Made by a program: the position numbers and the translations under genes | Part shown: positions 19,501-60,060 of the stretch, piece by piece | Layout of the letters: every line of letters begins with the position of its first letter | Position numbering within the stretch: the first letter of the stretch is position 1 | The notes under the pieces: model-generated | What the model was told of the DNA's origin: nothing | Database searches by the model: none | What the model saw: the letters and a program-made list of their open reading frames with translations, nothing else | From: Scolanthus callimorphus | Taxonomy: Eukaryota > Cnidaria > Anthozoa > Actiniaria > Edwardsiidae | Direction: 5' to 3' | DNA: 64,000 nt | Assembly (NCBI GenBank): GCA_033964015.1 | Contig: JAWWUD010000057.1 | Span: 310,001 to 374,000 of the forward strand

Positions 19501-22500
19501 ACGTCGCGACGGAAAGCCAGGCGACTGCACTAGGCGAAAAAGGGCGAGAATCTGATTGGCTCATAACATTTGACTGGCAGAACAGCAAAGCCAGAAACAA
19601 ATCGATGTTTTGAAAACGCGGGTTGCGATGTAGCGATTTTAGCTGTAAGTCACAGCGGAGTAAATTATATCAAGGTGCAACATAATGTTGTTACGCTCTC
19701 TTCTAGCTGGTATCGACACAGCTCGAGTGTTCAACCACGTGTTGCTCCAGCAGACGCAGCCTCAAGACAGCCAAGGCGCCAACACTATTACTCAGATGTA
19801 CTCTACTTGGTAAAGTATTCACTGTCTTTTACCTACTGGCACTCTAGTCAAGCGTGTTTAGTGAAAAGGGAGGTCTCAAAAAGTCGCGCTATTCACGGAT
19901 TTTCCATAGCAGCTATTTAGCCCCAAATCAGTTATAGTTTGAAGTCTGATGGCAGAGAAAGAAAGAAACATAAAAGTAAAAAGTAAAAGTAAGGAACTTT
20001 ATTAACGTCTCAAATGTATTTAGCCGTGCACTACGAGTGCACTACTAATTGGGGAGACGGTGCACACCTTACCCCCTTTCTCTGTCAGAGCTCCAGGTGA
20101 AAGGAATTCAAAGCTATAAGCAAGCTACTCGGAACAGAGAAAAGTCGATACGGTTGGTTGATCCGGGATTCGAACTCAGGACCGTACGCACAGTGTGCCG
20201 TGCACAAACACACTGCGCCACCTAGCCGTACCTACATATGGACATGTCAACGTACTTATAACTATCATCCAGGGGGCCGGTTCCTGAAAGGTTGGATAAA
20301 GTTATCCATGGATAAAAGTTATCTGTTGTATGGATTTGTTCTGGATTTATCCGTTGGATAAGCGTTTATCTACAGATAACTATTAACTGACCTTCTAGGA
20401 ACCGGCCCCAGGTAATCAAGTTTGAGGCTTCCCCAAGATGATATAGGTTAGCATTTGAGAAGAAGCTTGAACAAAATTAGGATGCTACTTCTTACTGCAA
20501 GTATAAGGATATCTAACTTAAATAAAAATGTCAACGAGGCAGAGTACTTTTCCTTTTAAAAAGCCCTAGCCATCCGCCATTTTGTCACGTTACCAGCATA
20601 CCGAGTCAAATAAAGCATCCATTTCCATCGTCTGATTTAGGTAATGTCATGTAAAAATTTTCAATGAATTCGGTAAATGAAAGATAAAACTTTGTTTGTA
20701 GACGGTTCTTTCGAGATTTCTACACGTAATTCGTCTTCTTATAACGAATGAAAACAATAACAAAGGAGTGGCTAGGGTTCTTTGAAGAAGAACATTACCC
20801 GTGATTATTATTATTTTTATTCCAAATTGTTCTTCAGGTACCTGGACGTCTTCTTGCGGCGTGTCATGACTGATGGTATCGTGTTCTCTCCCCGCCGCAT
20901 GGCGTTTGTCAACAGACCTGGTCTTTCGTTCAGAGCTGAGGAATATACTGATGTGAATGGTAACAACTAAATTTACGATTTGTTTATGTAGTTGTATATT
21001 TGTTCCTTTGACTACCGTAACCTAAATTACTCAAACAAACTGGCAACTACCAGATGGCACGGCATAATGCATTCGGCGCGTGGATATTTTAAAATCCCTT
21101 CTCACAACAAAACAAGCAATGTTCACCCATCCGTGGTGGGACGTTCAATTTTAATTTTTCAACAACACTCATAATGCTTTGTTATAAGATTGATATACCA
21201 TACTGTAAAACAGTGATTGTAAGCTGCACGACAGCAATTTGCACCATCTAATGCAGCCCGTTAAGTCCTCCATCTTTGTTCAGATGCTGTTTTCCTGACA
21301 CTGGTATATCTAACCAACAAGCCGATATTAAAGTTATGAGAAATGACATGTGTACTATACTATAAATTGTATTTATACTATATATAGTATATTTATAGTA
21401 TATAGTATATAGTATATAAATTGCATTTATAGTATAGTACACAATCATTTTTTCTCATAACTTTAATATCGGCTGGTTGGTTGGCTTATCATAAGTGTAC
21501 ATAACACATACTTAATGTGCGCGCGTGATGCGGTAGTTCGTTTGAACCTTGAATGTGACGCTTATCTAATGCGGTAGTTATAAGTTATAACCACTTAGCT
21601 GCGACCGCTCACCATAAGAGTCTCCATAGCTCAGTGATAGAGCGTCCGACAGGTATCGGGAGGGTCGCAGGTACAATTCCTGCTGGAAGCTCGGATATTT
21701 GACGAGCAATAAACTACTCTATTGACAATTGCTTCTCTTCTGCAGAGTTACAAGCCCTAGCCGAGCTGCTTGGCGCTTATGGCATGAGATACCTCGGCGA
21801 GAAAATGATGACTCAGATTGCTAGTCAAGTCAGCGAGCTCAAGGTATTGCTTGATCACGCCCCGGGATAAAATAATAATACAATGCTATTAAAGCTAACA
21901 TGCCAGGGTTAAATACGGATGTGAAAATCAAAGCACGTTCCTTATTGGTCTATTGGTCTATTTGATTCGTCTTCTTTTCCGCTTCCATTCAATTGATTTC
22001 CACTACAACTTAAGGGATGGAAATGGAGAAAGAAACGTAAGTAGAAGGAAACATTCCGTTCTGCTTTCTTCGCGCTTACGTCTCCTTCTCCGCCTCCGTT
22101 CTTTGATTTCCATACCTTACATCTCCGCTTACTTCAATAGTAAAACAAATTTAATGGCCACTCCTTTGTTTTACTTGGCCACGCAACGAATTACTTTGTT
22201 GTGGCAACATTCATGTCGCCGTTCCATTGTATACAGCTATTTCAATGTCAATTCAGGTTGTCAGCCTTGTGAGCGCTCAAGCTCGCCCAGACCGAAAGGC
22301 TGCATGAGCAGAAACAAAATATCCCATTTTAATGATGCCACACTGTCCCTACATCTTACAGAACAGACCTTTGAGCTTGTAATGTGAAGTAGTTTTAGCT
22401 AGTAATTCCCATACTCAAGTTGGCCAATTCAATACCTCCTACCCAGACAACTTTACGGCCTTGTCCCTTGCAGCTTCCCGCAACCTTTTTTTTTTAAATA

Positions 22501-32049: not shown

Positions 32050-32642
32050 GGCGACAAGACGCTATTTAACGTCCCCTCGGTCTTGTCCAAATGATAAAGC
32101 AAACCAATAGAAAATCAAGTCAAAATGTACTTTTGTTATAGATCCTGTTGACTCTCGTAGCAACCACCCGTTAACACGATGTCATATCGGGTCTTTTTAG
32201 CAGGTTTTTCCTTATCAAATAAGTTTTAAACAACAATCCGAGTTTTATAGACCTTACGCTTATACACCTAACAATAACGAGTTTCGATGTTAGTTTGAGC
32301 ACCAGGCTAATATGTAAGGCAGACTATCTGAGACCTGCTACATTTTCGACGTCTTTAACTGGTTGTGGCGTCATTGTTGAAACGCCATTTCCCCTGAGAT
32401 GTTTGGGACGTCAAGCATTGAATGTTTACTACTGAATACTACACAGTGGCTGCGCAAACCCCATACCAGGCTAAGTGATCCATTCAAGGGTCGGAAAATC
32501 TGGATAAGACATTTTGAAAAGAGGAAAAGAGGCCTCTGCTAGTAGGGAACTATAATAGCAGTGGTTCCAAAGAAAACAATTTGTGTTTCCATATTTTATT
32601 GAGATTTCCCCAGTGGCGGATCCAGGATTTTACAAAGGCAAA

Positions 32643-33056: not shown

Positions 33057-35245
33057 ATGGTGACATTTGTACTAAATTCTATCTGAGGATTAAAGTTATT
33101 GAGTTCGGAATATTAAACATGATACCGGACGAGCGGGAACGCACATACTAGTAATCTACATCAAACAGAACATGTAACAGATCAAACAACGGCATGTATT
33201 TACGCTAAAAATGTATTGCTTGATATGAGAGATTAGGACGCTATAATTAATTCAGAATGTTCTACATCTTTACAAATTTGTTGACTTCTCTATATCCATT
33301 TTCCAAGTTGTAGTAACTTATTCCAGAAGTCTGGAAGTTAGAAATTGATTACACTAGTAGCAGTCGTATCATGAAGTCTATTTCTGTCAAAGAATGCAGG
33401 TTATCACATCATTTATATTCTATGGTAAGCTGTTATTATCGAAGGTCGCCGATTTCTATCCTTGCCGTCTTGTCCAGACAATAGTTCACTTTCCTATAAA
33501 AGAAAGCAAATAATTGCCATATAATAGCGGAGCTCCTTGCGGCGGCCGAAGGCCGCCGCAAAGCGGAGCACCATACCTAAGAAAACAGCGTCAAAAACTG
33601 CAAATATAGTATTGGGTACCCTGTGTGAATTTTTTGTGTAACCTGTGCCAAATTGCTAGGGGTCGATCCGATTTTTGGACGTCTCAGAAAGCCCCGGATG
33701 TTGTACGTGTTCCTGAAGCCTGACGTCACAATAGCCCTATTGTGACGTCAAGCATGCTCAACTCACTGGGGGAGGGGCGCGTTGTCAGGAGGGAGGAGGG
33801 AGTGCTCAACTAATGGGGGAGGGGCGCGTTGTCAGGGGGGGTGATGCTGATGCTCACGTGAAAGGTAAAATCGCAGGCACAAATACCAGCATGTTTTGGC
33901 AACATCCAAAAAAGACTACAGGGCTGCTAGCGGCTGAAAAACGACCTACAATAATTACTCAAAGGAGAAAATGCCCTAAAAGAAGCCATGGAATCCAAAG
34001 ATTTGGTAGAATGGGGAATAATAATCAAGTTGGAGTATTTTCTTTGCCGGCTTGCTCCTGAAATTCTTCCAGTCGGAGTTCAAGGCCGAGAAATGACAGC
34101 TAACTGCAGAACCGTGCTATCACGCATTGTGCCTCAAAGGATAAAAATACGCGAAGAGGAAGCCATAGAATACAAACATTGGGTCGAGGGATGAGAAAGG
34201 GATCGAGGAATGATAAATTTGGTTAAAATTATCTCTAGTAGAAGAGCAGAAAGCAGAAAGAAATGGAAGCACCAGAGACTCTCAGAGAGACCTAGACGGA
34301 AATTGCGCCCGGGGAAGAAGGGGGAAGAAGCCGGGCAAAGCATGAGATCAGAGCAGAAAGTAACCACCAAAGAGAGGCATCCTGTTCTTTTCATCATATC
34401 TTTTTGAGACTACTCGATAGTCGAGGATTAACATGGAAACGGTTTAGTTGTTCCCCTATGGACTAACACTATTTTTTTGAAACAGAAACTTTCGGTACCT
34501 TGAAGTCCTTGAACGACACAAACGCCTGACGAGCGCATCACTTCCTTTACAGGAAGCGGAAATAAACTGGAAACAAGTTTCAAAGTTTCTATTGACAAAC
34601 GTCTTTGTTCATGACCACCACGTGACCCGAAGCGGCAAGATTAGTGAAAGTAAAGTTGTAGTTGTGTTCCTACAAACGATAGCCTGCTCTGTTTGTTTTC
34701 GAGAGGAGTCGTTTTCACGAGGAACAATTACAGGCTGCAATTCCACTGAATGCGAACGTGTGAGGACTATAGCTGAATTCACAGGAACTGAAAACGTTTA
34801 CAGTACAAACAAAATGGCGCCCAAAATCGAGCGCGGGAGTTTTCGTGTTTTGCCGTGTTTGTGGGTTCTTAACTCCCTAAAGACATGGAATAGCTTTGAA
34901 AGTCACGGATATAATGGGTGCGGTGTTGATTGGAAACTCACTGTTCGCTGGAGTTGGACAAACATTCAGTATGAAGTGGATTAAACTGCAAGCTCTTTGG
35001 TAAGAATGTCTTTTTGTTTTATGAGAAATATTTTCTCTGACTAGACGATCTCTTCAGGGAATTTGATCCTCGGCCGTACGATTTAGAAAAGATGATCATA
35101 GACTTTTTCAACTGTGTTTTGGCCATTCATTGAATTATAGAATTAATTACTTTGAATATTCTATCTATTGATAGCTATCTATTATTAAGTTGTTCTTGAA
35201 AACGTTCGACCCGTGTTTCAATTTGTTTTGGATTCTTCGTGAGTA

Positions 35246-35742
35246 ATGCACTAGTCAATTGAAACCCCCACCCCTAACCCAGGGAAGGGTGGCGTTATCG
35301 TTGGGGTTTAAAGCATTTTAAAACAAGAGTCTGTTCAGAGTGGGTGGTGGATTTGACTGGTTTTGATTCTGGAACCTGTCCCACCCCCGGGGAATGTTTA
35401 TTTGCTTTCAAATAAATTATTTCGGTCAATTCTTTCACTTTGATTTTGGCCATGCAAAATCTACATGTTAGCTACGATGCAATTCATTGGAATTATTCGA
35501 TTTTAATGCATTTTTCTGTACTTGCATCCCTTGTTTCATATAGGACACCACACTAGCTGAGGCCCACTCCCTTTGATGCTTGCAAGTAAAGGGTGATTTC
35601 GGAGGACCAAGGGTAGGGGCATTTCACAGGAATTTCATCCCGATGGAATGGGGACTTAAACAGCTTTTGTTCAGGGGTAAAATTAAATCCCCAACCCTTC
35701 CCCTGGTCCCTAGGGGTGGGGGTTTTCAATTGACTAGTGCAT
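35246..35742. mobile_element. MITE with ATGCACTAGTCAATTGAAA ends
   Basis: The left end ATGCACTAGTCAATTGAAAC is repeated inverted at the right end, followed in both by a run like CCCCCACCCCTA. It is 497 bp. No transposase frame. Confidence 0.8.
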
Positions 35743-37189
35743 AACCGTTTGTCCCCAGCCAAATATACGTTAAATGTTATGCATCAATAATATTTCCTTG
35801 CTCAAAGGAAAGTCAGCAGAGTGCACAGAACGTTTTCCCATTTCTGTTGGATCAGAATAAAGAGAGCCTCTGTTATATGTTTCTGCCATAGTTTCATTGT
35901 TTTCACCTCTTTCAAAAACCCAATAGAAGTATCTTGATCAAAGTTTTGAAACTTTTCTCAGGGGGAGCATGCCCCCTCAAACAGAAATTATTTTGTTTTT
36001 CTGTCTCATTTCTATTTTCTCTCCCCCCCCCCTCCCCCCCAAACCCCATTTTTCAGTATTTAAGTGCAATTAGGTGAAATTACCTTTTTTTTCCTTTTCT
36101 GACATCTTGTAAACCTGAAACTTCATGAATTTCAGACCCTTCTACAAAATTGCTCCACCATAATATGGAGTTATGTATTTGGAACACTTTGGACTTTGCT
36201 GCCTTCTGCTTACGGTAACACCCGTATGGCCAGGAGTAGTGTCTGGTCTAATATCTTTTGAAGGGTCTGCACGCAAGTATAGTAACTTGTGTTATTTCCA
36301 TTATGGAATCTAGATGGCAACCTGTTTCAATATACAGCTGAGGGTTTTTATAGAATTGGGTCGACATAGAGTTCATTGTAGTACTCCAGGGTGGAGAACT
36401 TTGACATTATATTTCTCCATTTTTCATTTTGTTGTTCATGGCATACATTTAATTTCCAAAATAGACCAAAATCAAGGAAGTGATTCTAAGTGTTCAGTAA
36501 CTGGATTTTTGGCCACTTTGCCAAAATTGCCCGGAATTCTCGTAAAATCTCTCTGGTAAAATGTCTCTGTCAGATAATGCAGTTTTTCCACTGAGGAATA
36601 AACATGTCCTGAATAAATCATGAAAGTTATTGTGTCCCTTGGTTATTGTGTCCCCCAGCTGACCCCCAGCCAGCAATCCTCGTGAGAGGGGTAGGCTGTA
36701 TTGGAAAAAGTAAAAAAGTAAAGCCCCCCCTGCTGAGAAGGGCGTTGAAAAGTGACCCCCACCCCAGTATTGTATGGAAAAGAGCAGGGAGCATGCTAAT
36801 TCTGACTGTAAGCCGTGGAACATGTGCCAAGCAATAAAATAAATCAAGCCAATCAAGCAATCTAATTTATTTGAAAATTTGAAAATTTAATCATTACAAA
36901 ATTTGAAACTGCAAACTTTTTTAGGGTTGAAAAGATTACCAAATATTTTAGGGGGATATTTTTTGGATATTTTGCAGGGATACAGCTGAGGCACCAAATG
37001 AGGCAAGATATGGGGATTAGGGGATATTTGGTCTCCAGACTTGCCTCTAGACAATCCCTCTGTGTTGAAATCAAACAATTCACTTGTGACCGAGACAACT
37101 CTGGGCTGAGAGATATGGTATTTGTTTAGGGACAGCATAAAACTGTCTATCTGAGGGGTCATATGAGTCAAGAAATAGGACAGGGCAAT

Positions 37190-37680
37190 TCTTGTTAGGG
37201 ACTGCTGTAAGGTCTAACAGCCCTATCAGTCTCAAACAGCATAGGGCTGCTGTTAGGGACAAACAGCTGGGAGGAAGCATTCCTTACGCCCACGTCTAAA
37301 AGGTGGGGCACATATTATGATCAACACCTACAGCCCTAAGAGCCCTGGCTGGCCTGACAACCCTAACATCCAACAAACTAACAGCCCTAACAAACCTAAC
37401 AGTCCTAAACAGCAGAGAGGAAGCATTCCTAAAAGGCGGGGCACATATTATGATCAACACCTAACAGCCCTCTGTTAGGGCTGTTAGGACTGTTAGAGCT
37501 GTTAAGACTGTTAGGGCTGTTAGGTCTGTAAGTGGTGTTAGGGTTGTTGTGTGTTATCATAATTTGTGCCCCAGGTCTTTTAAGAGGTGGAAGTAAGGAA
37601 TGTTTTCTCGATGCTGGTTTGGCTGTTAGGTCTGTTACACCTAACAACAGCCCTAACAAGAAATTCCCTGCCCTATTCCT
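37190..37680. repeat. Inverted clusters of a CTGTTAGGR 9-10-mer
   Basis: From 37200 to 37430 the plus strand carries CCCTAACA/CCTAACAG-like units, and from about 37467 the complementary TGTTAGGRC units follow. The two clusters can fold back. The unit is not the TTAGGG telomere hexamer. Confidence 0.65.
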
Positions 37681-39394
37681 TGACATGTCAGGGTTGGGCC
37701 AACTTTCTTGATTGTGCGTGACGCATGTGTTAGCCACAACACCAAGATATCCTTGCATTTTTTTTCTCATGTGAAACAGGTGCCAGTTTTGTCCCTACCC
37801 CAAAGTTGTCCCAGGGTCTTCTCTATCGTTTTTCAAAATGGTGGTTGACTCGGGAGAAGACCCTGGGGGAGGCTGAGTCACATGACCGTTCACAACAAAG
37901 GACAACGTCGTTCCCATGTTTTCAAACAGTGGTCATGTGACTCAGCCTCCCCAGGTTTTCTACTCGACAAACCGCCATCTTGAAAATTACCCACAAGACC
38001 CTGGGGACGAGGTTGATATCTCGCCTCATGCGAACAAGCCCTACGGGTGTCTACATTTTATTAGTTGAGTTGTCCTCATGCTTTTGTGTTTTGTAAAAGG
38101 CAGAAAGGCAATAATATTAGTATAAATATAATAAATGTATTTTTGATACTACAATTAACTACTACCATCTTTTATTCCTTATAATAGTTGGGAGCTCCGC
38201 TTTTAGGCAGTGCCTAAATCTATATATTATTCTTTTCGCAAAACTAGATACGCCAAGTTCCTGGACATTATACACTATCGAAGTTCCTGTCACTACTTTA
38301 AGACCCCGTCCACACGATTGCGGTTTTGTTTGAAAACGCAACTTTATCTCTGCGTTTTCAAAAAATAGCGCCCACACGTAGCGTTTTCGACTCGTTTTCA
38401 AAAAGTTGCGTTTTCGGTCATCGTTTCCATCGTATACGTGTGGACGATACATAGGCGGATTTAGGGGGGAGGGCTAAGGGGGCTACGGCCTCCTTCATCG
38501 GAAGATTTCCCCATACATTTACTGTATTTGCCGATGGAAATTTGCAATTTTTGGTCGCCAGCCTAAGAACAGGGCCTTAGACTTTTAGACTTTATTATTG
38601 AAAATAATATGAATATTAAATTACATCATAAAATGATCCGCAGTTTAAGCTAATCGTGGTGGATCAGTAAAATTAAAATATGTATATACCGTTTCCGGGA
38701 TATTTTGTCACTGGAAAAAGCAACAAAGCTTAGTGCGCTAGGGAGTATGGGTAAATATTTATTTGAATTTCTGTAAAATATTAGAAACAAACATGCTTAG
38801 AAATGTGCTGGAATTTAATGATTTTACCTGTGGTTGCGATCCTGTCTGAATTCAGATCAAACAGTAACAGTTTAGATGCCCCATTATCCTTTGCGCTTCA
38901 AGCTTATAGGCTTTTTGGGTGACAACGTTTTCCGGAAACGGTATATAAAGAATGGTAACAAGCAATTTTTAAGGCCGGCACAGACTAGGGGACAAGTCCC
39001 TGGGACTTATGCACACTAGAAAAAATGCGGGTATCTGTAAAGAGATTGGGAATATTACTAGGAGCACTTCCATTTCGTACGTCATGCATTAGGCAGCAAA
39101 CAGATTCAAAATACAGGAATTGTACAGGCAAAACATCAGCATCAACAAAGAGAGGCACAGCGTGATCGCTACGCCATACAGTGGTGGTTTCAAGGGAGGT
39201 GAAGGGTAGGATCAAAGGCGGTCCACTCTCTCAGCATGTTCTTGGACTCGTGGTTTTAGACACCTCTCTTTCTCTCATATTTAACACGGTACTATAGTCA
39301 CTCCCACTCCTCTCCAAACGTTCTGGGTCTACGATTCATTCGGTCGTTCACATGGCAAACGAAAGGCCAACACCAGGGAACCAAAAGAGTCGAG

Positions 39395-40830
39395 ATGGAT
39401 GGACCTAGGGGGACCACGTTACCGACCTGATGGAAGGGGGGATCTTTTGGGTATGAGTGGAAGAGAAACGAGTTGAGGTCACGATTGACCTGATATAGGG
39501 GACCACGTTACTGACCTGATAGAGGGGGGGGGGGGCACCTTTGGGTGTGGGTGGAAGAAAACAGAGTTGAGGTCACGATTAACAAGTACATGGATAGACC
39601 TGATATAGTGCGACCACGTCACTGACCTGATAGAGAGGGGGCACCTTTGGGTGTGGGTAGAAGAAAACAGAGTTGAGATCACGATTAACAAGTACATGGA
39701 TTGACCTGATATAGGGGGGCCACGCTACTGACCTGATAGAGAGGGGGCACTTTGGGTGTGGGTGAAAGAAAAACAAAGTTGAGGTCACGATTAACAAGTA
39801 CATGGATAGACCTGATATAGAGGGACCACGTTACTGACCTGATAGAGAGGGGGCACCTTTGGGTGTGGGTAGAAGAAAACAAAGTTGAGGTCACGATTAA
39901 CAAGTGTATGGATAGACCTGATATAGTGGGACCACGCTACTGACTTGATAGAGAGGGGGCACCTTTGGGTGTGGGTGGAAGAAAACAGAGTTGAGGTCAC
40001 GATTAACAAGTACATGGATTGACCTGATATAGTGGGACCACGCTACTGACCTGATAGAGAGGGGGCACCTTTGGGTGTGGGTAGAAGAAAACAGAGTTGA
40101 GGTCACGATTAACAAGTGTATGGATAGACCTGATATAGGGGGACCACGCTACTGACTTGATAGAGAGGGGGCACCTTTGGGTGTGGGTGGAAGAAAACAG
40201 AGTTGAGGTCACGATAACAAGTGTATGGATAGACCTGATATAGGGGGACCACGTTACTGACCTGATAGAGAGGGGGCACCTTTGGGTGTGGGTGAAAGAA
40301 AACAAAGTTGAGGTCACGATTAACAAGTGTATGGATAGACCTGATATAGAGGGGCCATGTTACTGACCTGATAGAGATGGGGCACCTTTGGGTGGGGTAG
40401 AAGAAAACAGAGTTGAGGTCACGATTAACAAGTGTATGGATAGACCTGATATAGGGGGACCACGCTACTGACCTGATAGAGAGGGGGCACCTTGGGTGTG
40501 GGTAGAAGAAAACAGAGTTGAGGTCACGATTAACAAGTGTATGGATAGACCTGATATAGTGCGACCACGTCACTGACCTGATAGAGAGGGGGCACCTTTG
40601 GGTGTGGGTGAAAGAAAACAAAGTTGAGGTCACGATAACAAGTACATGGATTGACCTGATATAGTGGGATCACGTTACTGACCTGATAGAGAGGGGGCTT
40701 CTTTGGGTGTGGGTGGAAGAAAACAAAGTTGAGGTCACGATTAACAAGTACATGGATAGACCTGATATAGTGGGACCACGCTACTGACCTGGGTGTGGGT
40801 GGAAGAAATGAGAGTTAAGGCCACGACAAA
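39395..40830. repeat. 106-bp minisatellite derived from the STAMBP last exon
   Basis: About 13 direct copies of a 106-bp unit (marker TTGAGGTCACGATTAACAAG at a 105-106-bp period from 39471 to 40729). Read on the minus strand, each unit contains a segment encoding FHPHPKVPPLYQVS, very close to the STAMBP C-terminus just upstream ([14 protein letters not shown]). Homology extends into the STAMBP 3' flank. Long minus-strand frames here are shadows of this array. Confidence 0.95.
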
Positions 40831-40840
40831 CTAGACTAGT

Positions 40841-43800
40841 TTATGTTTTAGACTGGTATAAAGGGACAATGTTACTGACCTGATAAATAGGTGGCTCCTT
40901 TGGATGTGGGTGGAAACCTGGCTTCTTACAAGATGAAATGAATGTAGTCCATAACTCTGGGTAAGTGTGAATACTCCCGTCCTGTATACAGAGGGTATGG
41001 TATTAATGGGTGGGATAAAAGGGCGACATTTGACCACCTGCCTTACGAAAAACGGGGACATTTTCTAAATAGGAGGATATTTTTTCTGTAATCAACGAAA
41101 ACCGAGAAGATCAACTAAACTGAAAGTAAAGGAAAGAAAAGAAAAAAGAAAGGCAAAACAGTGACGGCTTCCTTCATAGACGTTTTGGTATTTTGTGTAA
41201 TTGGTTTTCAGAACAAAGTTGAAAAAGGAGATTGACAAGGAAGCAAAATGCACACTAACAATTTATGTGTTTAAATTGATGTCAGTAGCGCAAATTGCTC
41301 AAAAATGTTAGCCCAGAATGCTAAAAGTGGTGTAGTCCTTCACTGGACAGTTTAGGACACGGTTCTAGCCCTAGCCTTCACATACATTTTAGGCACCTAT
41401 ATTTTAGCCTCTTATATTTGCATTCTGAGTAACGTGGATTGTAAAACGGAACATTTTTGGATACAAAGGCATAGATGTCATGTTGCAAAAAAGGTAACAG
41501 AAAGTTAGGCCCAGTCGAACTTCAGTAGAACTTCTTCTGTAGGACCTTTCCTTTTTCAAAGGATGCCGCTTCATTCGATTTTATAATGTTTTGGATTGGA
41601 ACGGCGCGACTCTGGCACGAAGTTTGGCGTAAGCCTACAGGCCACAAAAAATATGGTCTTGTGGTGTCATATAATGTTGTACGTTGACTTACTCTCCATA
41701 TTTGGGTGAGCACACGATGGCGATGGCCTCTGGCATCATCAGTTGGTAGGCACAATGCGTATGTAGATCAACACTCGACATGAAGGCAGTTTGTGATGGA
41801 TGAGTCTAAATACAACAACATATTCATCATCAGTTGGTAGGCACAGTGTGGTGTAGATCAACACTCGACATGAAGGCAGTTTGTGATGGATGAGTCTAAA
41901 TACAACAACATATTCATCATCAGTTGGTAGGCACAGTGTGTGTGTAGATCAACACTCGACATGATGAAACTGTATTTTGTGTACAGCAATAAAGCAATTT
42001 GCACGCGGTTTCAGACGTCTAATTCCCAACCTAATTACTATATTGTTTAGTGCCGGGATACGCGCTGAAATGTAAGGGGATATAATATAAACAAAAGCAG
42101 TGTTGTGTGTGAAATTATATTTCTGTAACTAAGACGAGAGAACTGAGTTTAATTAAACTGAGACACTAAACGAGTTTCAAAAGTTTTTCGTTCTACCGGC
42201 TGCTATATTTTTATTTATCGTAATTCTTTCTTTACCCAGAGTGCATTTCGGTCTTCTCTTGGTCTTTTCCCTTTTCTCTTTGGCACCGACAACGTTTCTT
42301 GAAAAGGCTATTTAACGAGATGTTATTAATAAAGAGAGAGAATTATGCTTTAAATACCCTCAACACTTACATGTATCCAGCCTAGAGTGATAAGGTTATG
42401 TGCATCTTGATATTCAAACATGTCTTCCTCACTCAGCGTGGTACAAGAGTCTGGTGTAGACGTCTGCTTAGGGACAACCAGATGGGTGATGCAAAACTGA
42501 TTTTGTTGCTGAAAGAAACAATATGGTGCTGGCATAAGTAACTGTAAAAGGTCACTGTAGCACAATCTGCTGCTGCTGCTACTACTGCTGCTGTAACTTC
42601 TGCTACTGCTGCTGCTATGACTACTGCTGCTCTTGCTCCTGCTGCTGATGGTACTACTGCTGCTATTGCTACTGCTACTACTGCTGCTGCTATTCCTGAT
42701 ACTGCTGCTACTACTGCTGCTACTACTGCTGCTGCTCTTCCTGCTACAATTACTGCTGCTGCTGCTACTACTGCTGCAGCTATTGCTGCTACAATTGTTG
42801 CTACTGCTACTACTGCTGCTACTAGTACTACTGCTCTGCTGCTATTTCTGCTGCTGTTACTGCTGCTGCTAATCCTGCTGCTGCTATTTCTGCTGCTGTT
42901 ACTGCTTCTGCTATTTCTCTGCTGCTACTGCTCCTGCTGCTGAGGCTACTGCTGCAGCTACTGCTACTAGTGCTGCTGCTGTTGCTGCTATTGCCCTGCT
43001 TCTACTACTACTACTACTGCTACGTCTGCTGCTGTTACTGCTGCTGCTTCTACTACTGATGTACTACTGCTGCTGCTACTGCTGCTGCTACTGCTGCTGT
43101 TGCTACTGCTGCTGCTGCTACTGCTGCTACTGCTACTAGTGTGCTGCTGCTACTGCTGCTGTTGCTACTGCTGCTGCTGCTACTGCTACTAGTGTGCTGC
43201 TGCTATTGCCCTGCTGCTGCTGCTGCTGCTGCTACTAGTGTGCTGCTGCTATTGCTGCTATTGCCTGCTGCTACTGCTGCTGCTGCTTCTACTGCTGCTA
43301 ATACTAGTGCTGCTACTGCTGCTACTACTGCTGCTGCTGCTGCTATTCCTGCTACTGCTACAACTACTACAACTACTACTACTGCTGCTGCTGCTACTAC
43401 TACTGCTGCTATTCCTGCTACAATTGCAACTACTGCTGCTGCTATTGCTGCTGCTGCTACCATTGCTGCTGCTGCTACTGCTCCTAATACAACAAAACAA
43501 CAATAAGCTCACAAGATGCCCTGTAAGTATTCCACATGTCTCCATGTTCCTTCTAGTGTTGGGTGATGCAATGTCCAGGAAGCGGCTTATTAAAACACTT
43601 GGGATATTCACTTTACGTAACCCTCCAACTGTTGAGGAATCTAAAAAGAAAACAATACAGAAATGTCCAAACTCAAATATATAAAATAAAAGCAACCCAA
43701 CAAAAAGTTATATTAATAATAAATTGATGAATCTATCATCCTTTAAAAGCCAGGGGCATTATCTCCCCTTTTTAGAGAGAGCTGTTAAATACCGCCTGAA

Positions 43801-46800
43801 CCATGATCATCTGCAGTGTGGCATATCCAGGGGAGGTGTGTTGGGTGCAGACACACCCTTTTGCAATACAAAAAATGGTTTAAAATGGCAAAATTTAGTC
43901 CTAAAGATGAAGTTCTAGTAGCCCTATTGGAAAATCTGTCTCTTCAAACCAGAAATGCACCCCCTTTCCAAAAACCTGGATCTGCCCCTGTTCTGCCCTC
44001 TTATAATTATGTTATTAGCATATCGAGCATGCGTTTTTATACTCTGTACAAAAATCATTTTGAAGACTTCTTCTTACAAAATTGTTGAGTCTGTCAGTGG
44101 ACCCTTGAAACTTGTGCACGCGTTGAGAGCCAGACCTAAGCGAATAGTTGTGGCTGACCTCAGATCCCCTTGGAAAAAGGTACTTAAGGGGGTAGACACT
44201 CTGACTTTAGCAACAAACTTCTTACAAATTTCCTCCCACAATTTCTTTACACCCACAGAAGCAGCTAGACAATAGTTTTGGTTTTTTTCCTCTTTCCAGT
44301 ATGTTTTCTATAAAAATTAACCAAGTCATGCATTTTGGTCATCCCCTATTGCGGTCAGCAAAGAATCAAACAATAACAAAGAAACACCAAGCATCACAGT
44401 TCACAGGTAGTATTTAAAACAGCAGGTTTCCAAGATGGCTAGACTGTCCTCACACACCCTGGTTGAAAATCCAAGCACCATATCGTGAAAAAGATGCTAA
44501 TCATCAAATTGAATTTGCTTCTTTAATGGCTTAGACACACAATGGTGTGAGAAATGGTAAGCATTCATTAAGTTATCAATTTTGATCACTATAAGCATAT
44601 CGATTGTACCTGATGAAAGGTCACTTGGCTTGGTTGATCTGTCTACAGATGGTGTGCTGCAAATGGGAATGAATAAGGGAGTGAGAACTCCAAGAATTAC
44701 AATTTACAAGGATCCTTGTTTCTCAGTCAAAGCTGATAGACTTGCAAACTTAGGATAATACTTGCCTTGATGCACAGAATAAAGAGAAGCAAATGAAGGT
44801 GGTGGTCTAGCTGGCTCTGTGCTCACACTTGCTGCCCCATGTGACCTGTTATTATCACCAGTTATGGTACTGTTGCTGTCAATTGTCTGATTGAGAGTGG
44901 GCGGGGCAGGATAGTCACCAATTAGAGTGGATGACAAAGGGCTCTCGGCAGGGGGGCACTAGGACCTGCGGCAGGTGTAGTATGACCTTGCTCCTTATTC
45001 TTTTCTCTCTGCTCTAATTCTTTGACAAGCTCCTCTTGTGCTCGTTTGTTCTCTTCTTCTTTGATTCTTTCTTGTTCCAGTCTAAGTCTTTCTGCCTCTG
45101 CTATCTGTGGATGATAATGGTGCAAACATTGTAAAACCCTGGTTAAACTAGGACACAAGTAGTGTGCAACATTGTAGCCAGACACATGTTTCCTTCATGT
45201 TTCCCTGTTTAGTCATGTGCGAAACATTGCCGCATACAACAAATTGGTAGCCAGGACACAAAGAAATGTTTCTTTGCAAGACAAGAAACATTTTATGTGT
45301 CCGAGACACACGTGTGCAATGTTTCCTAGTGTCTTAGTTCATGCCGTAGCTTAAGGATTTTGAGAATGTGTTATTCCAGAAAGGATCTCCACCCCACCAT
45401 GGAGGGAATTTTAAATTATTTCCCATAAAAAACATATAAAATATCAGTTTATTATCTTCAAAAAAAAAAAAAAATCAAATATAGTTCAACTTTTGGCAAT
45501 TGTTGTCATGTTTTATAGCATTGGTGTGGTGTGACGCAGCCCTTATACCAAAAAATGAAAAAGAGAGATGATGTTTTACCCTTTTCTTTTCCTCTTCCTC
45601 CCATTGTTTGTACTCTGTTTCATATCTCCTGGTTAGTATCCTCTTTAGCTCCTCTGCAATCTGAAATATCTGGGGAAGTTTCTGGAAAATAAAGAATAAT
45701 GTGAATGTGGTGATTAATTTATGCTGAATAGTAGTACAAGTTCATAGCAAACAAATCGGATTATTTTGATCTTGTTAAAAAATTTTAATTTTCATTACAA
45801 AGACTGAGCATTGGATAAGTGTGCACATGATTCTGCATAGTACTTATAGGTTGGAATAGATGACTAGTCTATCAGAGTGTCACAGTACATAGTCTAAGTA
45901 TCAGATCAGTTTACATTCTTTCATTCTTTAAGTTTGGTTTTCCCTCCCTCCCTCAGGAGCATATGGTGGGCAGTTTTATTTCTCCATGGTGATAGTCAGC
46001 TTGTTTATCAGGTAGTCTGGAAAATAAACCTCTCTCTGTGACAAACAAATGGAGTGTTGTATTCTTATGGGGCTCTGGGTAATATACCTTCATAGTTGCA
46101 CTCTTGTCATATTTTGTGATGGTGCCATACTCTGGATGCTGAGGTAACTTTTCAACAAATAACCTGCAAGAGGACATTGTTCTGAACCTGCTGTTTGATT
46201 AAAAAATAGACAAAATAGGGTTTTGTACTAACCTAGGATGCAATCAATGAACAATTTGCCTTTACATATTTTTAGTGAGCACACAAATAATATCAGGGAC
46301 AATGCAGTTACCCCGACTAATGAACACAGTAAGCTGCAAAGTTGAAAACCCATAGAAACCTCATTTCTTTTGTCCAATGCAGTAGGTGCAATGGAATTAT
46401 TGGTGCCTTCCTTACCTCCTCACCCAATTAGTTTCCATTCTATGCCTATTAGATGCTAGTTAATGTCTTGTATAACTAAGGGACCACAGTAATTGCCTGT
46501 TGTGGACTCCCTGCCAGATGTTTATGTTTTGTCTCGTGATGTGTAATAAGTCTAATATGTTTGTATAATTATTAATTTTCTTTGTTAATGGCGAAGCCGA
46601 ATAAATAAATAAATAAATGTCCTAACAAAACAAGTACACATCTTACTTACGTGATGTATTTTGAATACAAAATAAATGCACTCTCATAATTTCTCTCATC
46701 TTGGTATATCTTAGCCTACCAAATACAATAGAGAGACATGATACATAAGCAAGGGACATGCTGTCAATGGACAGACAGACTCGCTATCAGTGAGCCTTTG

Positions 46801-48122
46801 ATCATAGCATTGTTTAAATGATAAACAGAAATTAAGAAACCAATGACAAAGGACTTTACGGTTGAGCGGGACTTGAAGGTAACTAAATAACATTTTGCTT
46901 AAGGTTATTCCCCTGTTTTGCACGGCGCACGCTGTTCTGCGCATGGACGCGCGATCAATTCGTTCGAAAATGACGCAATCGAGCGCGCGCGCGCAAGCTA
47001 AATATCCCCATTTGAGCGAGAAACACCAAGAAAAAGTCACTTTTTGGGATTTTGCGCGAAAACAAGATTGGGCACCCCTATTTTTATTTTACCATTTTGA
47101 TAAGACTTTCATTCCCCTGTCATAAAAAATGTTTAAAGAAATTTCTACGACAAGTTTTTGAGCTATCGTCATAAAAAGCCCCAAAATGAGACACCAAAGA
47201 CTCTCAAATTATCACGAGCGGTGCGCACATTTTTGCACATTTTCAAGAGTAGCGTCAACACATATAGAAAATTAAACATTCCAATGTTCGTCCTAGGTAG
47301 TGAAGCATCCAACAGTTCTGTTCAAACTTGCAAGCGAACTGGATTGCTTCATTAGTGAGCGTTTTATCACAATTTTCTTGTTTCACGTAATACTTCACAA
47401 AATAGCCCTCAGGCACTAAAAATGGGGTATGTTTGCGCCATCACAGTTTCTAAACGAGCATGGGCGCCCCCTCTTTTTATTTCGTATTTTCATTCCTTAT
47501 ATACTAAATAGTAAATAGACAAATTAAGAAAAAAATTCTACGACAAGTTTTATTTCAGGGGAATTACCTTAAATTTAAAAAAAGAAACATTGTTTCATCT
47601 CTAAGTATGCATAAAGATATAAAATTAAATTATACCATTGTTACACATTCTAAAAAATCGTGTAGTAAAAAAAACCTACCCCTTTATCTAGAAAATTGTC
47701 AAATCAAAAGATTGATGGTCTATAAATAGTTTCTGACATCACTACAAACAAGACTTAATAGTAGCATCAGCAAGTACACATGACTAAGAAATCGTAGATA
47801 TAAGAATATACCAAAAATAGAGAAGGTGTATATATTTACAAATATAAATGAAAGCTTATAAATAAATTCACTTAAATAGCTTATTTTAAATATGGATGAA
47901 TTACAATTTTGGGTGGCGCTGTAATGAGAGTTGAAAATATTGACCAAGCCCACCGGAAAACCTGGTTAAAACTAGTCATTTAGCCATAAAACCTACCATT
48001 CTTTCTATCTCCACACCAGACCTGAAATAACGTTTGGGAGGAATGTCCTTTTCCACGTCCACAAGGCTGGCATGGTGGGATAAATTCCGTATTCTTTCAC
48101 TCGGTGGCTGTACAGCCGCCAT
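40841..48122 (-). CDS. STAMBP: STAMBP (AMSH) K63-specific deubiquitinase, 10 exons
   Basis: Zinc metalloprotease that cuts Lys63-linked ubiquitin chains on early endosomes with STAM and ESCRT-III. Coding exons, 5' to 3' on the minus strand: 48122-47997, 46715-46651, 46163-46088, 45681-45580, 45104-44762, 44656-44610, 43640-43513, 42508-42371, 41805-41693, 40981-40841. All phases agree. Features: N-terminal MIT-like domain ([15 protein letters not shown], then [12 protein letters not shown]), a charged helix, the STAM-binding motif PSVDRSTKP in exon 6, and the MPN+ domain in exons 7-10. MPN+ residues: Glu287 (METCGIL), His342/His344/Asp355 in [14 protein letters not shown], second zinc site His357 with C-x5-H-x-H in the last exon. 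Length would be 426 residues (424 in human). Two single bases are missing: in the run 44951-44956 (exon 5) and near 40943 (exon 10). The second zinc motif and the expected C-terminus lie in the shifted frame; read as is, exon 10 ends at 40831. Confidence 0.95.
41521..41645. mobile_element. Partial MITE, relative of 61749-61904
   Basis: Contains CTTTTTCAAAGGATGCCGCT and TTGGAACGGCGCGACTCTG, both present inverted at 61785-61850. Only one complete end is recognisable. It is in STAMBP intron 9. Confidence 0.6.
41734..41961 (-). repeat. Partial triplication of STAMBP exon 9, about 91-bp unit
   Basis: Units start at 41734, 41825 and 41915. The unit contains the first about 72 bp of exon 9 plus its acceptor (TTGTATTTAG). 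The copy at 41825-41914 has lost one base relative to the real exon (GTGTGGTGTAG for GCGTATGTAG), so its frame ends in TGA. The most upstream copy is cut short and lacks the exon start. Only the copy nearest exon 10 keeps an open frame and a donor. Confidence 0.9.
42568..43492. repeat. Interrupted CTG/CTA trinucleotide tract, about 0.9 kb
   Basis: Almost unbroken (CTGCTGCTA)-type triplets fill most of STAMBP intron 7, with occasional CCTGCT and GTGCTG changes. Open frames on both strands encode only Leu, Ala/Thr, Cys, Ser or Val runs and are not genes. In the STAMBP transcript the tract would read as AGC/AGT repeats. Confidence 0.97.
46899..47572. mobile_element. TTAA-flanked MITE
   Basis: The ends TTAAGGTTATTCCCCTG and CAGGGGAATTACCTTAA are inverted with one mismatch and are bounded by TTAA. 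ACGACAAGTTTT blocks recur inside. It is 674 bp in STAMBP intron 1. Confidence 0.75.
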
Positions 48123-57400: not shown

Positions 57401-60060
57401 CATTGCGCTTTCACGATTTCTTTCCTCGGTAGATAATTTTCCAACATTTTAGTAGTTCATGGTGTTTACAATCTGACCTTCGGTAAAGTTTAATACGTTA
57501 CTATACAATATAGTGCCGAAGGAAGAGCCCCAAATAATGAGTTTTCGGAGCACTATTAAAATTCAATTTTCCAACATTTTAGTAGTTCATGGTGTTTACA
57601 ATCTGACCTTCGGTAAAGTTTAATACGTTACTATACAATATAGTGCCGAAGGAAGAGCCCCAAATAATGAGTTTTCGGAGCACTATTAAAATTCAATTCA
57701 AGCCAAGCTGAATGAGCCTTCTAATTTGGCCAAAGTCGACGGCATTTTTATTACCGTTTCTGTTCCGACGAATTTTCTGTAACTTAGCTCGATTTGAGAT
57801 TACTTCAACTGGAATCGATTCCTGGAGTTTGAGCCAAAAAAACCGGCAAATTTTTTTTCTAGTACGACCTGAATATGAAATAAGGGCCTCACAACAATTT
57901 TGATTGTGACTTCTAAAAATGTTTCCAAGAAGATCGGTTATTAATAACTGATTTATACATCATTAAAGTAGGATTTGAAAAAAGAATTATAACAATAGGG
58001 GAAAAGACACAAAAGTTATAGCCTTGAGTTTGGCGACGCAGATTTGCGCTCTAGACACAGTTTGGTGCATTTTGAATTTCGAATGAGTCACCTTAAAAGT
58101 ATTCTTCACAAATTTGAGTTGTTATTTTATAATTGGTGTTGTTAAAATATTGATGTTTTCCACCAACGACTGGAAATTTTAATAAAAACAGTGTCCATGT
58201 ATTTTTTTATGCAGGCGCTAGTAGAGATGGGATCCACGTTAAGCAGGTGTGTTCTTCTACTGTAATGTATTCTTGCGTGGCATATGAAAATGGGCTGTTT
58301 GCTGGTATTGCGTGACATGTTTACTGCCATTTTCGTTCAATGCTGATGCGTGACGAATTTTTCGCAATAAAATATTTTAGGTTGTTTATGTTGTGGTGGG
58401 TAACAGTAGACCTCATGCACTCCATTTCTTTTTTGTGTCGGGCGTTCTACCCTTCCATGCCGTGAAACGTCTTAATACAAATTGCACCAACTAAGAGGTC
58501 GGTTTATTTGAAAGGTATACGTGCCTGATTATTTGTTATTCTTTTGATCTGACAGCTCTCAGCAAAAGGTAGAGGAGATGAAAGAAGTGACACAAACTAT
58601 GAAGGTAACCTTGGTATTGAGTAATGTTGAAATGACTGTAGTAAAATCAATCGCAAAGTGATTGCACCAATTCTGAGACCCCGTCCACTGGTATCCGGAT
58701 ATTTCTCCGTATTTAGAAAAAAATCCGCGTCCATACGGACCGTATTTAAATCGTATTTTCCCGTCCTCACGTATACGCGAAAACGATTCCAACGCGCAAG
58801 ACTTCACCTCTCGGGCATGCGCAGTGCTCTGGACCCTAACTTTGACGTCATCGTAAATGAAAACCTCCATTTTCGACCGTTTGCAACGTTCTCGTCTCTC
58901 TCCCAACATCATTTTGTGCCGATAACGTCATAGAAGGTTGTGCGCTAATGCTTAATTATATATGTTATACCTTGTGTAGCCTTCTGTTAATACTGAGCTG
59001 CTGTGTGTCTTTGTTGCAGGAAATGAAGTGGACAGAGGACAAGGAAGCGATGACCTGTCAGCAATGTGAGCAGCCATTCTCGCTCTCAAGACGAAAGGTA
59101 ATGACGTGTTAGACTTTGTGTCCTAAGGCTGATGTCTGTTCTGGCAAGGAAGAAGAGAAGGGAAAAAATGACTTCGTGTGATCAGGTCTTGTAAAGGCCC
59201 ATTCACACGCCTCGATTTTCAGCTGCGATTTGTGGCGATCCCATGGCGATGCCATATTGCGCGATGTGAATGGCCGGCGATCTTATGGCGATTTCAATTG
59301 CGATGTCGCCGCGACGCCGCAGACGTTTTTGAACATGTTCAAATTCCACTGCGATACGGGTGCGATTTCTTCAGATCGCAAGCAGACGGACAAATATCGC
59401 AGAGCCAAATCGCCGGTCGTTTACACCGCACGATACGACGTCGACGATCGCCGCAAAAATCGCAGCTAAGATCGCGCCGTGTGAACTGGTCTTAAAGAGA
59501 TTCAACTACTTTTTCAGACTTGAAAAAGATATATAAATTTAAAGATGGTTGTGAGTGGCGCCATTGGGGCCCAGCGTAATTCAGCTTACGAGCTGCAAGT
59601 TTGGGGAGTCGGTCGCGAACACTTTTAGGCATTGCCTAAATCTGTATATAACATTTGTCAAGTGATAACGGAATGGATATGACTTGGTGGTAATGGATTC
59701 CTCGACTCGATGGGTTGAGTCAAAGGTTTTGCAATCAATTTCATTGGATACTTCTATACAACGTACGGAATGATAATATTAGCTGGAACACTTTGAGCGT
59801 CATTAAACCTCGATCCTTCCATTAGCGTAGATGAATGTGAAAACAAATTTAGGACCTTTAAAGGGCAGGTTCGTACAGAGCAGTACGCAAATGGCAAACT
59901 AAACCTGACTTGTTACCTTTACCAGCATCATTGCCGTAACTGTGGAGGGATCTACTGTCATCCGTGCTCTAATAACACCATGCCTCTGCCGTCATCAGCC
60001 AAGCCAGTGCGCGTGTGCGATAGATGTCATACTAGTCTGTTACAACGCTACCAGAGATGA
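48406..60060 (+). CDS. RUFY: RUFY-family protein (RUN + coiled coil + FYVE), 19 exons
   Basis: Endosomal adaptor that binds PI3P through FYVE and small GTPases through the RUN and coiled-coil parts. Exons: 48406-48676, 48847-48964, 49724-49825, 50347-50470, 50832-50908, 51289-51369, 51698-51767, 52459-52560, 52635-52684, 53487-53553, 54095-54262, 54821-54918, 55281-55367, 55575-55704, 56375-56437, 58215-58246, 58556-58604, 59020-59097, 59926-60060; total 633 residues plus stop, all phases consistent, no frameshift. The RUN domain occupies about residues 40-190 ([45 protein letters not shown]). A heptad-rich coiled coil follows (about 225-560). FYVE residues 567-625 show WTED, RRKHHCRNCG and RVCDRC with all eight zinc cysteines (576, 579, 592, 595, 600, 603, 620, 623). 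Closest to RUFY1/2/3; paralog not assigned. Exon 2 has an alternative acceptor 87 bp upstream. Confidence 0.96.
49953..50265. mobile_element. G-rich palindromic MITE, family A
   Basis: Blocks GGAAATTTCAGAGGGGTGGGG and GGATATTTTTTGGAACCACAT match the right ends of the elements at 6.3-6.8 kb and the half element at 18405-18456. The core also holds a paired AGGGGAGAGAAAAGGG / CCTTTTCCCTTT section. It is in RUFY intron 3. Confidence 0.55.
51884..52064. mobile_element. MITE with TAGGGCAGATTTTGTATGGC ends
   Basis: The inverted ends match at about 30 of 33 bases (TAGRGCAGATTTTGYATGRC, then TGTGAAAAGTGCC). It is 181 bp in RUFY intron 7. Confidence 0.75.
53648..53668. repeat. Poly-C tract in RUFY intron 10
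   Basis: A run of about 20 C within a diverged dispersed repeat (about 53620-53875). A long open frame across it continues exon 10 but loses all coiled-coil character after the GTGAGT donor, so it is intronic. Confidence 0.7.
56815..58096. mobile_element. 1.28-kb TTAA-flanked foldback element
   Basis: The ends TTAAGGTGACTCATTC and GAATGAGTCACCTTAA are perfect inverts, and homology continues as arms of about 260 bp. The centre contains a perfect 130-bp tandem duplication (57437-57566 and 57567-57696). No transposase. It occupies most of RUFY intron 15. Confidence 0.9.
58675..58952. mobile_element. Dispersed MITE-like repeat
   Basis: It begins GAGACCCCGTCCACTGGTAT, resembling the CCGTCCACACG end at 38.3 kb. 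Its other end (CCGATAACGTCATAGAAGGT) resembles the right end of the 32.9-kb MITE. It may be a composite. It is in RUFY intron 17. Confidence 0.5.
59192..59494. mobile_element. MITE with TTCACACG ends
   Basis: TAAAGGCCCATTCACACGCC at the left and CGTGTGAACTGGTCTTA at the right are imperfect inverts. The GATCGCNGCAAAAATCGCAGC and CAGCTGCGATTTGTGGCGAT arms pair. The plus-strand open frame inside is not a gene. It is in RUFY intron 18. Confidence 0.65.

What the first reader, a model, noticed from the sequence alone, without database searches (positions are those of the whole stretch)
39395..40981. STAMBP terminal coding segment has expanded into a 106-bp minisatellite
The unit of the 39.4-40.8 kb array, read on the STAMBP strand, encodes FHPHPKVPPLYQVSNVVPLYQ, and the gene's own last exon ends [21 protein letters not shown]. 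Nucleotide similarity continues into the 3' flank, so the gene end behaves as the founder copy of about 13 further units. The FHPH part carries two ligands of the second AMSH zinc site. Units of 106 bp shift frame each time, and each copy carries its own stop in the homologous frame. The array could serve as a source of alternative 3' ends, or it could simply be transcribed as a repetitive 3' UTR.
Basis: seen in the sequence. Interest (0 to 1): 0.75.

Follow-up and report, generated by a model that had tools for sequence, protein, structure and literature searches.

The report
Repeated splice boundary inside STAMBP intron
The repeat is not the tail of the gene copied over and over but an exon-intron boundary (a splice site) copied about fourteen times inside the gene's last intron, a kind of repeat known from amphioxus and found here in a relative of sea anemones and corals.

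Summary
The 106-bp array is real: 14 copies follow a founder segment of a STAMBP (AMSH) gene on the minus strand. The claim that the gene ends there is not supported. In 10 of 12 aligned relatives about 19 residues (ESxHV...DLR) follow FHPHPKEPP. A last exon with its own acceptor and the tail LDKTARIEIGDLR-stop lies 7.4 kb downstream, at 33493-33436. The array therefore sits in the last intron. Each unit holds the last 36 nt of exon 10, its donor and about 70 nt of intron; GT is kept in 14 of 14 copies, CAGGTCAGT in 11. A smaller array (90 bp, 2.5 copies) repeats the acceptor and start of exon 9. Such 'mirages' are published for amphioxus genes, where they reportedly do not disturb splicing. 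Best reading: a neutral mirage made by tandem duplication and removed with the intron. Most units are also AG|GT sites that could act as acceptor and donor; stepwise or alternative splicing is possible but untested. New member of a known kind.

The parts
40880..40981 (-). STAMBP exon 10 ([12 protein letters not shown], 1-nt frame break, [21 protein letters not shown]), ending at the donor
   Evidence: alignment with 12 relatives; acceptor and donor
40874..40882 (-). 5' splice site CAG|GTCAGT of exon 10; score at the 99.1 percentile of 3538 GT sites on the minus strand
   Evidence: frequency table recalled, see Tried and rejected
40805..40915 (-). founder segment: last 36 nt of exon 10 plus 75 nt of intron 10
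39396..40804 (-). 106-bp boundary array ('mirage'): 14 copies of exon-10 end + donor + intron start
40841..40843 (-). first in-frame stop if exon 10 is read into the intron ([12 protein letters not shown])
33494..40879 (-). intron 10, which contains the array at its 5' end
33436..33493 (-). STAMBP exon 11, acceptor TTTCTTTTATAG, tail LDKTARIEIGDLR then TAA
   Evidence: tail score 32.9; 0 of 1000 simulated strands reached it, 0 of 40 simulated windows; acceptor 99.7 percentile; not found by an earlier 69-sequence profile
41693..41805 (-). exon 9, carries the JAMM motif ([18 protein letters not shown]...)
41806..41964 (-). second boundary array in intron 8: 90-bp unit of intron tail, acceptor and start of exon 9; one full extra copy and one partial copy
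42371..42508 (-). exon 8
43513..43640 (-). exon 7
42567..43482 (-). 3-/15-bp AGC/AGT-type array filling about 91% of intron 7 (916 of 1004 nt)
   Evidence: intron ends
44610..44656 (-). exon 6
44761..45104 (-). exon 5, with an apparent 1-nt deletion in a C6 run near 44950 (end set by reading at the GT donor CAA|GTATTA; searches used 44766)
45580..45681 (-). exon 4
46088..46163 (-). exon 3
46651..46715 (-). exon 2
47997..48122 (-). exon 1, start codon

Best explanation
The array is an intronic minisatellite of the 'mirage' kind. A segment straddling the exon 10/intron 10 boundary of an anthozoan STAMBP gene (36 nt of exon, the donor, about 70 nt of intron) was duplicated in tandem and then expanded and homogenised, most likely by unequal exchange or slippage. 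It lies at the 5' end of the last intron and should normally leave with it: exon 10's own donor joined to the acceptor of exon 11 gives the standard ...PPIYQ-ES...DLR end. If a downstream donor copy is used instead, the mRNA keeps intron and repeats and reads [16 protein letters not shown], a protein with the FHPH pair but without the conserved last 19 residues. Shown: anatomy, founder, retained splice signals, a matching last exon. Inferred: duplication mechanism, neutrality, splicing outcome.
For: 10 of 12 aligned relatives continue after FHPHPKEPP[L/I][Y/F][E/Q] with about 19 residues ending in DLR plus 0-3 more, while the window reads [12 protein letters not shown]. The two exceptions stop at this very place: Orbicella isoform X3 (P0003) diverges there with VRLS, as expected if a GT donor is read through, and the partial Nematostella model (P0001) stops at PPLY. 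The donor scores second of the 8 gene donors scored (behind exon 8's; exons 2 and 5 not scored) and at the 99.1 percentile of GT sites. Exon 11 tail: 0 of 1000 simulated strands reach its score, its acceptor is at the 99.7 percentile, and it begins E-S as most relatives do. Founder-unit homology covers 36 exonic and 75 intronic nt. The outermost copies are the most divergent (founder 73-77% and u14 78-86% to u02-u13, which are 89-98% alike), a turnover pattern that PMC3087553 also reports. Same class of structure in amphioxus, where Adh3 data and globin RT-PCR are said to suggest no interference with regular splicing (passages of PMC3087553; passage of PMC3902484).
Against: No RNA, no second genome and no DNA of any relative were available; the own-genome search did not complete. 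The donor has C at +3, which is uncommon (recalled). Against relatives exon 11 as assembled lacks 2 nt, exon 10 lacks 1 nt and exon 5 lacks 1 nt. As assembled, exons 7-11 splice into one open frame that reads FHPH out of frame and returns to frame for DLR. A 69-sequence profile of tails did not find exon 11; it was first seen by a pattern search and only then scored. AATAAA at 38763 and ATTAAA at 38819 lie 2 kb past the read-through stop, so a transcript ending there is not excluded; the first AATAAA past exon 11 is at 32600. Not all edge copies are divergent: truncated u01 is 92-97% like u02-u13 where it aligns, and u13 is 90-94%.
Confidence: 0.83

Rival explanations
1. One reading: the gene ends with ...[21 protein letters not shown] and the array is a transcribed repetitive 3' UTR or a source of alternative 3' ends.
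For: An in-frame stop follows soon after the boundary. No AATAAA or ATTAAA occurs between the stop and 38819, so a transcript ending at 38.8 kb would include the array. Orbicella X3 shows that a predicted protein ending just past this boundary exists.
Against: The ESxHV...DLR tail is missing from the read-through but present at 33.5 kb behind a strong acceptor; a donor sits exactly where homology with relatives stops.
Confidence: 0.08
2. The copies act in splicing: most units are AG|GT sites with a pyrimidine tract, so exon 10's donor can splice to a unit's AG, regenerate CAG|GTCAGT, and the intron is removed in steps (recursive splicing), or donors compete and set the level of a short isoform.
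For: 12 of 14 units keep AG|GT. In the same call the AG scores at the 99.3 percentile of 4019 AG sites in 7 of 14 units and at 97.0-99.9 in 5 more (2 have no AG), against 91.7 for the founder. Duplicated AGGT can serve as both donor and acceptor (review PMC3443670, passages).
Against: The donor 9-mer is not clearly protected: 2 substitutions in 108 positions of u02-u13 where the unit-wide rate (55 in 1265 bases) would give about 4.7. Amphioxus mirages are reported not to disturb splicing. No RNA data.
Confidence: 0.06
3. A decayed or duplicate STAMBP copy in which repeats accumulate freely.
For: Three frame breaks against relatives, in exons 5, 10 and 11.
Against: Only 1 of 109 columns invariant in the other 12 sequences differs (I to V; one further column is a gap because the query given lacked exon 11), within the 0-6 seen when each other sequence is left out in turn. 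The breaks are best read as small deletions, one in a C6 run, as in assembly error (inference).
Confidence: 0.08

Closest known systems
[quoted passage not shown]
   Same: Unit straddles a boundary and many units carry splice signals; both 5' and 3' boundaries can be affected; repeat units partly homogenised with the cluster ends excluded (PMC3087553 passages; PMC3902484 passage)
   Different: Anthozoan host instead of a cephalochordate; 14 copies here against the 6 and 3 repeat units given for the two BflGb6 haplotypes (Adh3 copy numbers not seen); length instability and splicing not tested here
Intron gain by tandem genomic duplication of AGGT-bearing segments (Rogers model, as cited in PMC3087553 and PMC3443670)
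   Same: Duplicated AG|GT creates potential donor and acceptor pairs (PMC3443670 passages)
   Different: Here the duplicated AGGT is an existing exon-intron boundary, so no new intron need arise
Recursive splice sites (ratchet points; definition recalled)
   Same: Pyrimidine tract followed by AG|GT in most units
   Different: No RNA evidence, and the sites arise as copies of an exon end

Membership tests
Mirage (boundary minisatellite) | tandem repeats whose unit spans an exon-intron boundary | tested here: met
   36 exonic + 75 intronic nt founder, both parts above 1000 shuffles; boundary from relatives, donor and last exon
Mirage (boundary minisatellite) | copies carry splice signals (many but not all, in amphioxus) | tested here: met
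   GT in 14 of 14, CAGGTCAGT in 11 of 14, AG|GT in 12 of 14
Mirage (boundary minisatellite) | concerted evolution within the cluster, ends excluded | tested here: met
   u02-u13 89-98% alike, founder 73-77%, u14 78-86%; but u01 is 92-97%
Mirage (boundary minisatellite) | length instability between haplotypes or cells | not testable with these tools
   only one assembled copy at hand
Mirage (boundary minisatellite) | regular splicing not disturbed | not testable with these tools
   no RNA data
STAMBP/AMSH (MPN+ JAMM deubiquitinase) | sequence relationship to the AMSH and AMSH-LP catalytic domain with HxHP...D motif | tested here: met
   E about 1e-63 to AMSH-LP and STAMBP chains; [14 protein letters not shown] present
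STAMBP/AMSH (MPN+ JAMM deubiquitinase) | intact reading frame | tested here: inconclusive
   apparent deletions in exons 5, 10 and 11 against relatives; residues otherwise conserved
3' UTR minisatellite from a terminal exon | founder is the end of the last coding exon | tested here: not met
   founder crosses a donor; last exon found downstream
Recursive splicing array | stepwise splicing at AG|GT sites in RNA | not testable with these tools
   only sequence scores

The most novel reading that the evidence does not exclude
The array is a working chain of AG|GT sites: exon 10's donor can splice onto any of about a dozen near-identical sites, each regenerating the donor, so that splicing cleans up the repeat stepwise and tolerates any copy number. 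Tandem expansion of a boundary would then be self-neutralising, which would explain how mirages persist in conserved genes, in cnidarians as in amphioxus.
Probability: 0.08. Interest if true: 0.65.

Novelty: new member of a known kind. Interest (0 to 1): 0.36.

Why it matters
In the papers I saw, boundary minisatellites are reported from amphioxus and proposed as raw material for new introns. A 14-copy case plus a small second one in an anthozoan gene suggests the process is broader, and gives a natural test of how a spliceosome chooses among many near-identical donors. It also corrects the gene model: the last exon is 7.4 kb further on.

Tried and rejected
Rejected: terminal-exon/3' UTR reading (see rivals). 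Rejected as evidence: the coincidence of two arrays on exon edges of one gene. Placing 11 hand-listed arrays of unit 30 bp or more at random gives a mean of 0.64 arrays covering an exon edge and P = 0.13 for two or more (which used exon-2 edges 4 nt off and exon-5 end 5 nt off), so it does not show a special mechanism. No further boundary repeats: of 22 windows of 100 nt at exon edges (start and stop included), only the exon 9 acceptor and exon 10 donor had repeat hits at E up to 1e-3, plus the exon 7 donor hitting the AGC array. No other copy of the 106-bp unit was found elsewhere in the window (blastn, E up to 1).

Led nowhere: a profile of 69 C-terminal tails (those of 120 listed proteins that passed a length and motif filter) did not find exon 11 (best E 2.2 elsewhere). 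A pattern search had already shown the candidate, so the later matrix of 9 hand-picked anthozoan or presumed anthozoan tails (the medusozoan or unnamed rows P0014 and P0015 left out) is not a blind test. Zinc-ligand roles of FHPH are recalled, not tested. Host identity rests on STAMBP alone (75% aligned identity to Nematostella, 63% Actinia, 57-62% named stony corals).

Full report
What is there. TRF lists a 106-bp array at 39483-40791. Cutting the minus strand at TTCCACCC gives a founder segment (40915-40805) and 14 further copies to 39396: one truncated copy of 86 bp, twelve of 103-107 bp, and one divergent partial copy. The founder's exonic 36 nt agree with the consensus at 31 positions ([12 protein letters not shown] against FHPHPKVPPLYQ), and the following 75 nt also align; both beat 1000 shuffles, while the exon just upstream and the 196 nt beyond the array do not.

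The gene. Exons of a STAMBP homologue run from 48122 down the minus strand. The assembled protein's best named hits are STAMBP-like proteins of Nematostella (618 bits), Actinia, Orbicella, Pocillopora and Acropora, and its catalytic part hits AMSH-LP and STAMBP chains at E about 1e-63. Residues are well conserved: 1 of 109 columns invariant in the other 12 sequences differs, against 0-6 when each other row is left out in turn. Aligned identity is 75% to the partial Nematostella protein, 63% to Actinia and 57-62% to the named stony corals, so the host is most likely an anthozoan, nearest to Nematostella among the sequences seen.

Why the gene does not end at the array. Of the 12 relatives aligned, 10 continue after FHPHPKEPP[L/I][Y/F][E/Q] with about 19 residues ending in DLR plus 0-3 more. 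In the window the match to relatives stops exactly at TATCAG|GTCAGT. This donor scores at the 99.1 percentile of 3538 GT sites and second among the 8 gene donors scored. The two rows without a tail break off at the same residue: Orbicella isoform X3 goes on with VRLS, and the Nematostella partial model stops at PPLY, which fits a conserved boundary. A pattern search then showed LDKTARIEIGDLR-stop on the same strand at 33477, behind the acceptor TTTCTTTTATAG ending at 33494 (99.7 percentile of 4019 AG sites), with the exon opening E-S as in most relatives. Scored with nine tails it reaches 32.9; the next best place in the window reaches 19.7 and is on the other strand. None of 40 simulated windows (maximum 28.6) and none of 1000 simulated strands of 40880 nt (maximum 27.2) reached it. 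Against this, a 69-sequence profile had not found it, and the test was made after the candidate was seen.

So the array sits at the start of a 7.4-kb last intron. Its unit is a copy of an exon-intron boundary. GT is present in 14 of 14 downstream copies, CAGGTCAGT in 11, and AG|GT in 12. The unit also has a longer pyrimidine run before the AG than the founder has: the AG scores at the 99.3 percentile in seven units and between 97.0 and 99.9 in five more, against 91.7 for the founder; two units have no AG there. The donor 9-mer has 2 substitutions in 108 positions of u02-u13, where the unit-wide rate would give about 4.7, so it is not clearly protected. The consensus unit reads PPLY where the gene has PPIY; 11 of 12 relatives have L at this place, so the array may keep an older codon, while its K-V-P is a change of its own.

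A second case in the same gene. The 90-bp array at 41734-41964 repeats the end of intron 8, the acceptor and the first part of exon 9, which carries the JAMM motif. One full extra copy and one partial copy lie in the intron; blastn gives 95.7% over 94 nt and 94% over 50 nt. The full extra copy has lost a base and would run into a stop if used. Intron 7 is filled to about 91% by an AGC/AGT-type array (with intron ends). Under random placement, two arrays on exon edges is not unusual (P = 0.13).

Known kind. [quoted passage not shown] PGBD5 and troponin C are further lancelet cases (PMC3902484, passage). The anatomy here matches, with one difference in the turnover pattern: the truncated first copy u01 is not divergent (92-97%). 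Two searches of the open library with minisatellite, boundary or mirage and cnidarian terms (15 of 18 papers listed, 2 of 2) showed no cnidarian mirage in titles and starts of abstracts; most subscription papers are not held, so this is weak evidence of absence.

Mechanism. Shown: boundary-spanning units, founder, retained donors, a matching last exon downstream. Inferred: tandem duplication followed by unequal exchange or slippage, and removal with the intron. Using a later donor would retain intron and give a stop after [12 protein letters not shown], a form that keeps FHPH (recalled to include two ligands of the second zinc) but loses the DLR tail. Stepwise splicing on the AG|GT sites is possible in principle (review PMC3443670, passages) and is kept as the novel case. 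A transcript end at the polyA signals at 38819 or 38763 would make the array a 3' UTR in that isoform and is not excluded.

Open point. Against relatives, exon 5 as assembled lacks one base (in a C6 run), exon 10 one and exon 11 two. The last two add up to three, so exons 7-11 as assembled form one open frame that skips FHPH and recovers DLR. Since the FHPH codons are intact at DNA level and exon 5 is broken without compensation, deletions in the assembly are the likelier cause, but reads are needed.

Noticed in passing
41734-41964: Second boundary-spanning array (90 bp, 2.5 copies) on the acceptor of the JAMM exon of the same gene
   Followed up: yes
42567-43482: AGC/AGT-type 3-/15-bp array that fills about 91% of intron 7
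   Followed up: partly
about 44950, 40945 and 33485 (minus strand): Three small apparent deletions in coding exons; the last two together keep an open frame that reads FHPH out of frame
   Followed up: partly
57435-57698: 130-bp tandem duplication with 100% matches
   Followed up: no
16468-16786: 32-bp repeat, 10 copies, 96% matches
   Followed up: no
21620-21691: tRNA match in Rfam (40.2 bits) that ARAGORN does not report; may be a tRNA-derived element
   Followed up: partly
10299-10817: 172-aa open frame that by eye resembles the end of a retroelement polymerase; not tested
   Followed up: no
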